Source: Acidobacteriota bacterium (lineage in GTDB: Bacteria > Acidobacteriota > UBA890 > WLXD01). From it: a stretch of DNA of 64,000 nucleotides. Below the pieces are notes generated by a model. It saw nothing but the letters and a program-made list of their open reading frames with translations, searched no databases and was not told where the DNA came from. Every line of letters starts with the position of its first letter. The stretch's first letter is position 1. Both the position numbers and the translations under genes were made by a program. Positions 46,876 through 64,000 of this stretch are shown here, one piece after another. The DNA is taken from NCBI GenBank assembly GCA_012103255.1, contig WLXD01000001.1, positions 1,129,501 to 1,193,500 of the forward strand, read 5' to 3'.

Positions 46876-47511
46876 ATGACTGACTGGAGACACTTGGTGC
46901 GACACCAAGACGGCATCACACTCGTTGAGGTCACAGTTCTGCTGGCAGTGATTGGACTGCTCGCGGGCCTGATGACGACCGCCGCAGGCGACCTGCTTGG
47001 GCAGTCGAAGACCGTGCGCGCGCAGGAAGATGTGCAATACATCGGCCGTGCCGTGGGCGAGTTCTATGCCGACAACGGGTTCTTCCCTCGGACCGCAGAC
47101 ACCGTGGACGGACGTCCAGGGACGAGCGAGTTCGGCGCGTTGATCAGCGATGCGCCGCTGCCGGGGACGACAAGCTCCACCACGCTGTGGACGGAGTCGA
47201 GCGTCAGCTCGATGACGTTGCACCTGATTCGCAATGACGTCGGCTACCAGGTGCGGGACGTACTACGTCCACGCGGCTGGAACGGTCCGTACCTTTCGAG
47301 CGCGATTCAGGACGACAGTTGGGGCCATGCATATCTGGTCAATTCCTTCTGGCTCGATCCGCGCAACGTCATCCAGGACGTTGATGGGACAAAGCTAGGC
47401 GCTGTTTGGGTGCTCTCCGCAGGGCCTAACGGCGTGCTGGAAACACCCTTCTACCAACCTCGCGACGCCGCGCGTCTGTTCGGCGACGACATCGGATACC
47501 GATTGCAATGA
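46876..47511 (+). CDS. pseudopilin-like protein 1 (prepilin N-terminus, GspG-like C-terminus)
   Basis: DGITLVEVTVLLAVIGLLAGLM...; WNGPYLSSAIQDDSWGHAYLVNSF...VWVLSAGPNGVLETPF. Confidence 0.82.
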   Translation: MTDWRHLVRHQDGITLVEVTVLLAVIGLLAGLMTTAAGDLLGQSKTVRAQEDVQYIGRAVGEFYADNGFFPRTADTVDGRPGTSEFGALISDAPLPGTTSSTTLWTESSVSSMTLHLIRNDVGYQVRDVLRPRGWNGPYLSSAIQDDSWGHAYLVNSFWLDPRNVIQDVDGTKLGAVWVLSAGPNGVLETPFYQPRDAARLFGDDIGYRLQ

Positions 47512-48344
47512 GAAGCATGGACAAGCTCAGAAACGACCGCGGCTTCACGCTGGTCGAGGTGTCTATCCTCCTCACGGTTGTCGTGATCCTCTCCGCGACT
47601 CTCGCGCCCGTGATGAGCGGCGCAATGGCGTCGGCGCGGATGACCTCCGCTCGCGCGGACATGATGACGATCGCGACGGCTCTTCAGGCATTCCTCGACG
47701 ACATCGGCTGTGTCTTCGTGCCACAGAACAACACCGGCAGCGGCGACTCGCCAACATCGCGAATCGGCCGCTCGCGCTCCGATGGTGTGGTGGTCGCTCC
47801 GACTCAGATTCCGCCCACGATGCCGCCGCCGAACGGCGCGGCCGGTGGTGCGATCAGTGCCGCAATTTCCGCCTCTGTGTGTGCGGCACCCAATGTTTGC
47901 TCCGGTGACGCGGTGGAGTTGCTGGTTACCTCCGGCGACATCCCCGCACTTGGCCCGGAGGGCGACGAGCTTTGGTTGACCCCGCCCGACGGCCAGTGGG
48001 TCGACTTCATGGAGTACTTCCTGGTTTCGAATACGCCTGGCGACGACTCCGGCCGCAGGTTCCCGACGCTCGCCGATTGTGGCGACGCGATCGTCGATCT
48101 GTTCGAAGGCATTCGAGCCTGGCAGGGCGCCTACATGGGCGCCGGCGCTGGCGACCCCTGGGGCAATCGCTACGCGATCAACACGCATCTTCTGACCCAG
48201 ACCACCGGTGAGGACATCGTGATCCTCTCGGCCGGGCCGGACCAGGAGATCGATTCCACTTTCTATATGGACGGCTTCGTGCCGGGCGACGACGACGTGG
48301 TCATGGTGTTCTCCGCCGGGCCGGCCGAGGTGCCTGGACGATGA
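47508..48344 (+). CDS. pseudopilin-like protein 2
   Basis: RGFTLVEVSILLTVVVILSATLAPVM; DPWGNRYAINTHLL...IVILSAGPDQEIDSTFYMDGFVPGDDD; ATGA overlap with previous gene. Confidence 0.85.
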   Translation: MRSMDKLRNDRGFTLVEVSILLTVVVILSATLAPVMSGAMASARMTSARADMMTIATALQAFLDDIGCVFVPQNNTGSGDSPTSRIGRSRSDGVVVAPTQIPPTMPPPNGAAGGAISAAISASVCAAPNVCSGDAVELLVTSGDIPALGPEGDELWLTPPDGQWVDFMEYFLVSNTPGDDSGRRFPTLADCGDAIVDLFEGIRAWQGAYMGAGAGDPWGNRYAINTHLLTQTTGEDIVILSAGPDQEIDSTFYMDGFVPGDDDVVMVFSAGPAEVPGR

Positions 48345-49348
48345 ACCTTCGACTTTCTGAACGCAGCGCTGGGAGGCAGCTCATGTTTCACAATGGAATC
48401 CGGGATCGGCGCGGGTTCACGCTGGTCGAGGTCTCGATCATCGTGATGGCTCTGGCCATTCTCTCCTCGATTCTCCTGCCGCAAATCGGCGTGTTCCTGC
48501 GGGACGCGCGGTTCGCCCGAGCTCGCGAGGACGTGGGCGCTTTGGGTGTTGCCATGATGCAGTTGCTCAAGGACACCGGTGAGAGTTCGTTCTACGCCGA
48601 GCCGCAGGGCAACTGGCGTTCACCGCGGCGCTTCGAAGAGGGTGACAGCAGCCCCGTTGGGCTCCTCATCGGCGACGGCGACACTCCCGACGGCCAGGAC
48701 CGGTTCTATGACTGGCGTGCCCCGCTGGGCTCGACGGTTTCGAACGCGGGCACTGACTTCGCCGATGTGTGGGTGAACTCGGGCATCGTGGACACCTTTG
48801 CCAACCACCTGATCCAGAACAATCCGGCCGACGTGAACCACGAAGGCGGAGCGGGTCAGTCGTGGGAGCGCTACCGCACGCCGGCCGACATGGTCGGTGG
48901 CGATCACAGCTCCGGCGTTCCGGGTGGCCTTCAGTTCGACGGTGCTAGTGGCCAGGGCTTCAACTCCGAGTTTGCCTGGCGCGGCCCCTATCTCGACGCC
49001 GTGCGCCCCGATCCGTGGGGCAACCGATACATGTCGAACGTGATGTGGCTGACCATGCCGCAGGGCTCTGACTCTTCCGGCTTTATCCGCGCGATCATCG
49101 TGCTCTCCGCGGGTCCTGACGAGGAGGTCGATACACCTTTCGACTCCGTCGGCGGCTTCATGCTCGGTGACGACGATATCGCCTACCCGCTCGCCAACAC
49201 GGGAACTCCTGATGACCAACTCAGTAGCCACTCCGACCGACCGCCTGGCGAAGTCGCGCTCCGCGCACGGCTTCACCCTGGTCGAGGTCACCATCATCCT
49301 GATGGTGCTGTCGGTGCTGAGCCTGATCCTGCTGCCAGGGATCGGTAG
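48341..49348 (+). CDS. pseudopilin-like protein 3 with overlapping C-terminal extension
   Basis: RGFTLVEVSIIVMALAILSSILLPQIG; WRGPYLDAVRPDPWGNRYMSNVMWL...IVLSAGPDEEVDTPFDSVGGFMLGDDDIAY; ATGA overlap upstream; ORF reads ~137 bp into the next gene. Confidence 0.82.
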   Translation: MNLRLSERSAGRQLMFHNGIRDRRGFTLVEVSIIVMALAILSSILLPQIGVFLRDARFARAREDVGALGVAMMQLLKDTGESSFYAEPQGNWRSPRRFEEGDSSPVGLLIGDGDTPDGQDRFYDWRAPLGSTVSNAGTDFADVWVNSGIVDTFANHLIQNNPADVNHEGGAGQSWERYRTPADMVGGDHSSGVPGGLQFDGASGQGFNSEFAWRGPYLDAVRPDPWGNRYMSNVMWLTMPQGSDSSGFIRAIIVLSAGPDEEVDTPFDSVGGFMLGDDDIAYPLANTGTPDDQLSSHSDRPPGEVALRARLHPGRGHHHPDGAVGAEPDPAARDR

Positions 49349-50009
49349 CTACCTGCGTGATGCGCGACTTGCCCGTGCGCGGGCCGATCTGGTCGCGATT
49401 CACGAAGGTGTGCTCCGTTTCCTCGAGGACACGGGCGAGGGAGTATTCCGGTGCATCGGCAACAGCAACCGCGACACCTCGGACGGTGGTACAGACGACC
49501 CGTCCGATCCGGATCCGTTCTTCACCCTCGACATGCTCATCTCCGACGGCGACACGCCCGACGATGGCCGCGACGACGGTGATGCATGGCGCTGGCGTGA
49601 GCCCTGGTCCGGACACCCGGTCGACACGCTTGCGAATCATCTCGTGAAAAATACGCCGGGCTACGATGCCAGCGCGCGCTACCGGACGCCCGACGATATC
49701 GAGGCCTATGGCAGCGAACGCCAGGTCGCCTTCCCAGGCGGCGCCGGCTTCGGTGCACGTTTCGCCTGGCGCGGGCCCTACGTGAGCGGTCGTATCGGTG
49801 CTGATCCCTGGGGCAACCGCTACGCAGTGAATGTTGTGTACCTCGATCCCGGTGCCGACTCCGCCACGCTCGACTACGCGGGCTACGAGTTCGACGTCTT
49901 CGTGCTGTCGGCGGGCCCTGATGAGGAAATCGATACCCCGTTCTCGATTGACGGCGTGATGCCTGGCGATGATGACCTGATTCGGGTGATCTCGGGAGGC
50001 AGTCGATGA
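49212..50009 (+). CDS. pseudopilin-like protein 4
   Basis: HGFTLVEVTIILMVLSVLSLILLPGIG; WRGPYVSGRIGADPWGNRYAVNVVYL...VFVLSAGPDEEIDTPFSIDGVMPGDDDL. Confidence 0.86.
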   Translation: MTNSVATPTDRLAKSRSAHGFTLVEVTIILMVLSVLSLILLPGIGSYLRDARLARARADLVAIHEGVLRFLEDTGEGVFRCIGNSNRDTSDGGTDDPSDPDPFFTLDMLISDGDTPDDGRDDGDAWRWREPWSGHPVDTLANHLVKNTPGYDASARYRTPDDIEAYGSERQVAFPGGAGFGARFAWRGPYVSGRIGADPWGNRYAVNVVYLDPGADSATLDYAGYEFDVFVLSAGPDEEIDTPFSIDGVMPGDDDLIRVISGGSR

Positions 50010-63170: not shown

Positions 63171-63211
63171 GAACGCTCTCGGCGCCTACGGCGCCATCCC
63201 CGGTCACGCAG

Positions 63212-63238
63212 GCTCGGACGCGGATGCGTCCGGGCTTT
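63212..63238 (+). terminator. intrinsic terminator-like hairpin
   Basis: GCTCGGACGC-ggat-GCGTCCGGGC-TTT. Confidence 0.6.
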
Positions 63239-63456
63239 CGTGCGTCCGGGACATGGCCGGTCGAGACGCCCCCAGAGGCGGCCACAGGACCCTGAATCCG
63301 TCCAGTGACGAACTCCAGTGGACAGGAGCGGACAGGCGCGGCCATGGGCCTTTGCTTTGTACGCGGCGCGCACGCAAAGTGATCTAACGATCAACGGCCA
63401 GTCTAGATGCCCTGATCGGGATACCACTCGCCGAGCCTGGGAGGAGGAACGACGGG

Positions 63457-64000
63457 ATGGCAGCGCATTGTGACGCGCGACGGCAAGCAGGATTCACGCT
63501 TGTCGAGGTGACGATCATTCTGCTGGTCCTCGTGATCCTCTCAACGATCATGTTGCCGCAGCTGGGCAACTTCAATCGTCTGGCCCGCCGCGTGACGGCG
63601 GTAGAGGATGTGGGCGCGATCTGCGCGTCGGTCAAGAAGTGGCTCGACGAGGTGATGCTCAGCGGCCCGTGGGTGCAGCCCGGCGGCGGCTTGCAGAACC
63701 CTCAGGATCCGATCGGCCTTCTTGTAGGCCCCGGCACCACGCCGGTGATCGGTAACGGCCTGGCTGGAGCGACGCCTCGCGCCTCGAACGACATCTGGGA
63801 TGCGCCGGCCGTGGCTATCGATGCCTTCACGGTGTCCACCGACGGGGTCGTGCCACAGACGGTCGCCTTCGATACCGATCTGCTCTTTCACCACCTGCAG
63901 ATGAACAACCCGCAGGGCATTTCGGTGGACATCGAGGATCGGTACAAGAACATTGCGGAGCTCCCCGAAGTAGGCGCCTGGTTCGGCTGGCGTGGCCCCT
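63457..64000 (+). CDS. pseudopilin-like protein 9, truncated by window edge
   Basis: My translation from ATG 63457: MAAHCDARRQAGFTLVEVTIILLVLVILSTIMLPQLGNFNRLARRVTAVEDVGAIC...ELPEVGAWFGWRGP; no stop before window end. Confidence 0.86.
   Translation, partial: MAAHCDARRQAGFTLVEVTIILLVLVILSTIMLPQLGNFNRLARRVTAVEDVGAICASVKKWLDEVMLSGPWVQPGGGLQNPQDPIGLLVGPGTTPVIGNGLAGATPRASNDIWDAPAVAIDAFTVSTDGVVPQTVAFDTDLLFHHLQMNNPQGISVDIEDRYKNIAELPEVGAWFGWRGP

What the first reader, a model, noticed from the sequence alone, without database searches (positions are those of the whole stretch)
46876..64000. Tandem array of at least nine GspG-like pseudopilins, continuing past the window end
Nine ORFs share a class III prepilin leader (G-[F/I]TL[V/L]E[V/I]) and a C-terminal W[R/N]GPY...D[P/S]WG..Y..N......[V/I]..SAG..... 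block, usually with terminal GDDD acidic residues. The latter resemble the Ca-binding C-terminus of T2SS major pseudopilin GspG. GspG is usually encoded once in a T2SS operon, but here no gspD/E/F-like machinery gene appears within the array. The first five are translationally coupled (several ATGA overlaps). Copies 6-9 are separate units with their own leaders and terminators.
Basis: partly seen in the sequence, partly recalled or inferred. Interest (0 to 1): 0.82.

Follow-up and report, generated by a model that had tools for sequence, protein, structure and literature searches.

The report
Conserved pseudopilin array with own machine
An uncultured Acidobacteriota bacterium carries a row of ten related pilus-type subunit genes directly beside the genes for a machine that could assemble them, and the same row has been kept in the same order in related species, which suggests one surface or secretion filament built from, or chosen among, many different subunits.

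Summary
The array is real. Nine GspG-type (pseudo)pilins run from 46.9 kb past the window end; a tenth follows on the minus strand and two solo paralogues lie elsewhere. They are GspG-like along their whole length (hhalign to E. coli GspG 98.3%, to GspH 64.8%; 11 of the 12 best fold hits of P5 are GspG), with a large insertion and a longer calcium loop.

Copies are orthologous and syntenic in sister genomes and under purifying selection (dN/dS 0.08-0.19). Rearranged versions with 2-14 pilins occur in other Acidobacteriota. So this is neither an antigen store nor junk duplication.

Two subunit classes are visible: a coupled P1-P5 operon behind a conserved sigma-54 promoter, and a set sharing one assembly helix plus a covarying cysteine pair. 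I read it as a dedicated MSHA/T2SS-like type IV filament system with many subunits. Function is untested. The reverse transcriptase inside the array is a separate insertion.

The parts
42891..44384 (+). sensor histidine kinase (PAS, HisKA, HATPase), conserved upstream of the array
   Evidence: Pfam; 76% identical, syntenic in OFTM26
44384..45769 (+). sigma-54-dependent response regulator (NtrC family)
   Evidence: Pfam Sigma54_activat; 83% identical, syntenic; also beside pilin/machinery loci in G401, G402, G246
46236..46251 (+). perfect sigma-54 -24/-12 promoter TGGCACGGCGGTTGCT
   Evidence: 19.4 bits; 99.7% quantile of upstream regions 15.0; conserved in all four genomes, 7 exact sites in the genome
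46333..46548 (+). HTH_17 (BldC/excisionase-like) DNA-binding protein a
   Evidence: 94% identical in OFTM26
46621..46839 (+). HTH_17 DNA-binding protein b
46876..47511 (+). P1, GspG-like pseudopilin (set B); prefers start 46897
   Evidence: orthologues in 3 genomes
47508..48344 (+). P2, GspG-like pseudopilin (set B); prefers start 47517
48341..49348 (+). P3, GspG-like pseudopilin (set B); stop lost by a small 3' deletion so the frame runs into P4; prefers start 48383
49212..50009 (+). P4, GspG-like pseudopilin (set B)
50006..50662 (+). P5, GspG-like pseudopilin (set B); structure modelled
50861..51097 (+). small HTH-type DNA-binding protein c
   Evidence: by position and sequence resemblance; not scanned against Pfam
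51217..51471 (+). HTH_17 DNA-binding protein d
51578..51799 (+). HTH_17 DNA-binding protein e
52043..52837 (+). P6, GspG-like pilin (set A, Cys45/Cys198); structure modelled
61147..61902 (+). P7, GspG-like pilin (set A)
62394..63170 (+). P8, GspG-like pilin (set A)
63457..64000 (+). P9, GspG-like pilin (set A), continues to window-equivalent 64242 (C1:1193742); followed outside the window by Pr (minus strand, C1:1194158-1195312), ABC/GldG genes C1:1195913-1199133 and machinery C1:1199685-1211172

Best explanation
The array supplies the subunits of a dedicated type IV filament machine of MSHA/T2SS type encoded immediately downstream. The kinase/sigma-54 regulator pair and small HTH proteins control it. 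P1-P5 are co-translated, mutually divergent GspG-type subunits that probably occupy fixed places in the filament (base, shaft, tip). P6-P9, the tenth copy Pr and the solo paralogues S1/S2 share a related assembly helix (nearly identical in all but Pr) and a predicted disulfide, and differ in their exposed heads, so one machine could polymerise any of them as alternative or mixed subunits. The single prepilin peptidase found in the genome would process all of them. The filament crosses the outer membrane through the MshL-type secretin and works in adhesion or protein export. Shown: array, homology, orthology, synteny, purifying selection, machinery, promoter sequence, cysteine covariation. Inferred: co-assembly on this machine, division of labour between the two sets, disulfide and calcium binding, biological role.
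For: GspG homology over full length (GspH only its first 48 residues) and fold. Machinery 2-6 kb away with GspE, GspF, PilM-like, GspM-like, MshL-type secretin, ExeA/MshM-like and TPR proteins, same order in OFTM26. The same components beside 10, 14 and 2 pilins in G401, G402, G246, in rearranged order. Array positions group with their own orthologues in sister genomes; dN/dS 0.08-0.19 against 0.06-0.16 for GspE, GspF, HK, RR, ABC and GldG. Sigma-54 promoter before the HTH-P1-P5 operon in four genomes with a regulator of the matching type adjacent. Set A (P6-P9, S1, S2): alpha-1 78-95% identical, heads 38-64%; Cys45 plus a Cys before the SAG loop in 23 of 25 complete set A sequences from four genomes and in 0 of 19 P1-P5 sequences. 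One prepilin peptidase in the genome, outside the locus.
Against: No expression, filament or secretion data. Foldseek E-values for P5 are weak (0.17 and above), and the P6 model retrieved no pilin at all. The genome has two more assembly systems (C1:1027-1038 kb, C1:1038-1051 kb) that could use some of these pilins. In G402 the GspE/F genes lie about 42 kb from the pilin array. Two set A sequences (the S3 genes in L025, L027) carry the second cysteine at the C-terminus instead.
Confidence: 0.58

Rival explanations
1. A type II secretion system in the strict sense: the multi-subunit pseudopilus stays short and pushes exoproteins through the secretin, with the many GspG-like subunits adapting the piston to different cargoes.
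For: GspG-type subunits with the calcium-loop block; a GspM-like protein; calcium-dependent GspG is typical of T2SS (PMC6692295).
Against: No GspH/I/J/K-like minor pseudopilins recognised in the locus; secretin scores best as MshL (203.5 bits, cut-off 250) over GspD (178, cut-off 351) and none reaches its cut-off; no secreted cargo gene recognised in the locus.
Confidence: 0.25
2. All copies are interchangeable major pilins, as with Haloferax PilA1-6, expressed one or few at a time under the HTH regulators; no fixed positions in the filament.
For: P6-P9, S1 and S2 have nearly identical helices with divergent heads and dispersed solo copies; in Haloferax six pilins with a shared H-domain can each form a pilus (PMC4371748).
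Against: P1-P5 helices are only 30-72% identical and the genes overlap in one apparent transcription unit, which fits co-assembly better.
Confidence: 0.25
3. Antigenic-variation store: silent copies recombine into an expression site, or a reverse transcriptase diversifies them.
For: P6-P8 leader segments are closer to each other in silent sites (dS 0.38-0.52) than to their own orthologues (0.61-0.73) in the window genome, suggesting local gene conversion of the helix segment; a UG4 reverse transcriptase sits between P6 and P7.
Against: Globular domains are stable, orthologous and under purifying selection; every copy keeps a leader; the reverse transcriptase is UG4, not DGR, has two other copies at C1:717 and 734 kb and is not found in the two sister genomes or the family member searched; in OFTM26 P6 and P7 are adjacent.
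Confidence: 0.04
4. Recent tandem duplication without function, or decaying copies.
For: Copy number differs (P10 is present in OFTM26 and OFTM137, not found in the window genome); P3 has lost its normal stop here.
Against: Orthologues in up to four genomes and dN/dS well below 1 for every copy tested.
Confidence: 0.02

Closest known systems
GspG/PulG major pseudopilin (Pfam T2SSG, TIGR01710)
   Same: Leader, long helix, DPWGNxY block, SAGPDG...DDI calcium-loop block in one alignment with E. coli GspG; fold matches
   Different: About 200-370 aa instead of 139; insertion of roughly 60-100 aa between helix and WxGPY; lengthened calcium loop; many paralogues instead of one; below the TIGR01710 equivalog cut-off (49 vs 88.85 bits at best)
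MSHA pilus locus (mshI-N, mshE, mshG)
   Same: Single locus with ATPase, platform, MshL-type secretin, ExeA/MshM-like ATPase, TPR protein, no prepilin peptidase in the locus, matching the description in PMC6668835
   Different: GspG-type instead of MshA-type pilins; permuted gene order (V. cholerae order from memory); secretin below the MshL cut-off; ABC/GldG genes attached; that paper found MSH in Gamma- and Epsilonproteobacteria and Chrysiogenetes
Haloferax volcanii adhesion pilins PilA1-PilA6 (PMC4371748)
   Same: A set of pilins with nearly identical assembly helix and different exposed domains
   Different: Archaeal; not co-regulated with the biosynthesis genes; not known to be GspG-like; no second, divergent co-transcribed set
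Canonical type II secretion operon (E. coli gspC-O)
   Same: GspE, GspF, GspG-type subunits, GspM-like and secretin genes together
   Different: No recognised GspH/I/J/K, no peptidase in the operon, ten GspG-type genes, MSHA-like accessory genes

Membership tests
Type IV pilin superfamily | class III leader with Gly(-1), Glu5 and hydrophobic helix | tested here: met
   All nine in the window, the tenth copy and both solos
Type IV pilin superfamily | long alpha-1 helix plus C-terminal beta-sheet | tested here: met
   AlphaFold2 models of P6 (pLDDT 93.8) and P5 (90.0); only two members modelled
GspG | full-length homology to GspG rather than to other pseudopilins | tested here: met
   hhalign 98.3% to E. 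coli GspG over residues 1-188 of P5, 64.8% to GspH over the first 48; GspI, J and K not compared
GspG | NCBI equivalog cut-off TIGR01710 | tested here: not met
   best 49.0 bits against cut-off 88.85; hence GspG-like, not GspG orthologue
GspG | calcium binding at the C-terminal loop | not testable with these tools
   SxG...DD block conserved but with a longer loop
Canonical T2SS | minor pseudopilins GspH, I, J, K with the machinery | tested here: not met
   none among the called genes of C1:1172-1211 kb or the domain scans of the machinery genes; no dedicated GspI/J/K profile search was run
MSHA system (Denise et al. 2019 model) | mshE, mshG, mshL, mshM mandatory | tested here: inconclusive
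   homologues of all four functions present; the secretin's best family is MshL but below cut-off; the ATPase and platform score as both GspE/PilB and GspF/PilC; no ATPase tree was built
MSHA system (Denise et al. 2019 model) | mshA-type major pilin | tested here: not met
   array pilins are GspG-type
Diversity-generating retroelement acting on the pilins | DGR-class reverse transcriptase next to its target | tested here: not met
   best class RT_UG4, 389.5 bits; no UG4 match in the sister genomes

The most novel reading that the evidence does not exclude
A separate class of type IV filament system, found in scattered Acidobacteriota families with related genes in one Lentisphaerae genome, in which one MSHA/T2SS-like machine with an attached GldA/F/G-like ABC transporter builds a filament from ten or more different GspG-type subunits, with a disulfide-stapled interchangeable set added to a fixed co-translated set.
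Probability: 0.35. Interest if true: 0.72.

Novelty: new variant of a known kind. Interest (0 to 1): 0.52.

Why it matters
GspG is normally one gene per secretion system. A locus that has kept 9-10 distinct GspG-type genes in fixed order across species, beside one machine, gives a natural case for asking whether type IV filaments can be true multi-component polymers, and it sits at the MSHA/T2SS boundary where secretion systems are thought to have arisen from pili (PMC6668835). The conserved link to an ABC/GldG module, for which no paper was found that describes it together with pilins, is an additional lead.

Tried and rejected
Antigenic variation or a silent-copy store: rejected on orthology and purifying selection, though weak leader gene conversion among P6-P8 remains possible. 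Reverse transcriptase acting on the array: rejected. No machinery: true only inside the window. Fold search with the P6 model gave no meaningful match, so the fold claim rests on P5 and on sequence. The profile of the C-terminal part alone found nothing in PDB; with the helix it finds pilins including GspG, mostly through the helix. Literature on pseudopilins in Acidobacteriota, tandem pseudopilin paralogues, and GldG with pseudopilins found nothing on this system; only open-licence papers were searched. Sigma-54 sites were sought before the machinery, P6-P9, Pr and the solos and not found, so that promoter is assigned to the HTH-P1-P5 unit only. The phylum survey scored at most 9 candidates per genome, so its per-genome copy counts are lower bounds.
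Full report
WHAT IS THERE. The window is C1:1129501-1193500 of a 4.81 Mb genome in 9 contigs; by its relatives (MAGs OFTM137 and OFTM26, same genus; B23T1B8, same family) it is an Acidobacteriota bacterium (the pairing of G001-G003 with these names rests on matching contig numbers and coordinates). The nine ORFs reported are present. A whole-genome scan for leaders with the C-terminal block finds 12 close members: nine in the array (the last ending at C1:1193742, 242 bases past the window), a tenth on the minus strand (Pr, C1:1194158-1195312), and two solo genes (S1, C2:893899; S2, C6:454720). 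A divergent thirteenth (Px) lies in the machinery operon.

MACHINERY. Right of the window come an ABC ATPase, an ABC-2 permease and a GldG-like protein (C1:1195913-1199133; Pfam ABC_tran, ABC2_membrane, ABC_transp_aux), then GspE (440 aa), GspF, Px, a PilM-like protein, a GspM-like protein, a small protein with no family match placed like GspC/PilP, a secretin, an ExeA/MshM-like AAA+SPOR protein, a TPR protein and a lytic transglycosylase, to C1:1211172. The secretin scores 203.5 bits as MshL, 178 as GspD, 141 as PilQ, each below its own cut-off. The genome has two further assembly loci at C1:1027-1038 kb and C1:1038-1051 kb, three secretins and one prepilin peptidase, outside this locus.

WHAT THE SUBUNITS ARE. 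Profile comparison aligns the family to E. coli GspG along its length (98.3%) but to GspH only over the helix (64.8%). In the alignment E. coli GspG reads YIKRLPADPWGNDYVLVNP...SAGPDGEMGTEDDITNW and P5 reads GPYIANMVEEDPWGNRYVINV...SAGPDGIFDT...ADI. The P5 model (pLDDT 90) finds GspG structures of Vibrio, Klebsiella and E. coli as its first six PDB matches and 11 of its first 12, with TM-scores to target of 0.50-0.60, though E-values are weak (0.17 and above). The P6 model (pLDDT 93.8) has a 52-residue helix and beta strands, but Foldseek returned only noise for it. The family differs from GspG by a large insertion before WxGPY and a longer calcium loop. Calcium binding itself is not shown; GspG calcium dependence is from PMC6692295 and its references.

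CONSERVATION. In OFTM26 the order HK, RR, HTH-a, HTH-b, P1-P5, HTH-c, d, e, P6-P9 is the same, and a second contig carries a tenth plus-strand pilin (P10, cut at its start), Pr, ABC/GldG, GspE, GspF, Px and the remaining machinery genes. OFTM137 and B23T1B8 show parts of the same order. In a maximum-likelihood tree the array positions group with their own orthologues; several groups have full support, others (P5 92/84, S1 90/80) less, the P2 sequence of B23T1B8 is incomplete and long-branched, and its P7 counterpart is placed apart. dN/dS between window genome and OFTM26 is 0.08-0.19 for P1-P9, Pr and S2, against 0.06-0.16 for the machinery and regulators tested and 0.28 for Px (dS is above 0.9 throughout, so these are rough). 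Outside the family, G401 (nzgw76) has 10 pilins and G402 14 on one contig, and G246 two, beside the secretin-ExeA-TPR genes; in all three, GspE, GspF, a Px-like gene and the sigma-54 regulator lie on the same contig, and ABC/GldG genes in G401 and G402. In G402 the GspE/F block is about 42 kb from the array. One Lentisphaerae genome has pilins next to ABC genes. A survey of 401 Acidobacteriota genomes found the family in 21 at E <= 1e-8, so it is patchy.

TWO CLASSES. Among P6-P9, S1 and S2 the first 40 residues are 78-95% identical while the heads are 38-64% identical; among P1-P5 the figures are 30-72% and 31-46%. Set A sequences carry Cys45 in the helix and, except for the two S3 genes of the sister genomes, a second cysteine just before the SAG loop (23 of 25 complete sequences); none of 19 P1-P5 sequences has that pair (counted by hand from its output). 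I predict a disulfide, not checked on coordinates. In G401, G402 and the other distant arrays Cys45 is absent, so set A looks like an expansion of this family. Pr has an additional insert with eight conserved cysteines. P1-P5 overlap and lie behind a perfect sigma-54 promoter (window 46236) that is conserved in front of the HTH-P1 unit in all four genomes; there are seven exact sites in the whole genome. No such site was found before P6-P9, Pr, S1, S2 or the machinery.

MECHANISM PROPOSED. A sensor kinase and sigma-54 regulator switch on HTH-a/b and P1-P5; the HTH proteins probably tune the rest. The prepilin peptidase, encoded elsewhere, removes the leaders. The GspE/GspF-type motor assembles P1-P5 as fixed components, with set A subunits as alternative or additional shaft units because they share one assembly helix. 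The filament leaves through the secretin. The sequence of assembly, the stoichiometry and the role are inference. The main rivals are a short T2SS-type pseudopilus and a set of interchangeable major pilins like Haloferax PilA1-6 (PMC4371748).

THE REVERSE TRANSCRIPTASE. Between P6 and P7 the window genome has an 8.3 kb stretch with a UG4 reverse transcriptase, a B12-binding radical SAM protein, a SpoIIE-type phosphatase, PadR and an FtsX-type permease (the last named by resemblance only); in OFTM26 P6 and P7 are adjacent. UG4 has been reported near FimA/FimD fimbrial genes (PMC8934634), but those are chaperone-usher genes, and here two further copies lie far from this array, so I treat the neighbourhood as chance.

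VERDICT. Real, not an artefact; GspG-like confirmed; isolation from machinery not supported; a conserved multi-pilin variant of an MSHA/T2SS-like system, function untested.

Noticed in passing
window 53145-53184 and 53722-54672; C1:717370-718409, C1:734344-735298: Three UG4 reverse-transcriptase copies (two 95% alike over 1040 bp, the third 78%) each lie near a displaced 3' half of tRNA-Val(CAC), in the orientation opposite to the RT; the third copy has such a fragment on both sides, 1.7 kb apart. The intact tRNA gene is at C4:316454. This looks like a mobile RT unit with tRNA-derived ends.
   Followed up: partly
C1:1194158-1195312 (window-equivalent 64658-65812): The minus-strand tenth pilin Pr carries an insert with eight cysteines (two CxxC pairs) conserved in OFTM26 and OFTM137, unlike any other member.
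   Followed up: no
window 49120-49290: A small deletion at the 3' end of P3 removes the stop codon found in three relatives, so P3 is extended and overlaps P4; natural or assembly error not distinguished.
   Followed up: partly
window 52133-52280, 61174-61320, 62430-62580: Silent-site distances among the P6, P7 and P8 leader segments are lower within the window genome than between orthologues, suggesting gene conversion limited to the helix-coding part; short segment, not tested statistically.
   Followed up: partly
L030, L031, L033, L035, L039, L042 (Lentisphaerae SI037_bin151): A 14 Mb Lentisphaerae MAG holds about 12 pilins of this family on many contigs, some next to the ABC genes, and 30 matches to the T2SSE ATPase family.
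   Followed up: no
about C1:1048036, upstream of the T4P pilA gene at C1:1048159: The ordinary type IV pilus pilA of this genome also has a good sigma-54 promoter (16.1 bits, TGGCATGAGCATTGCT).
   Followed up: no
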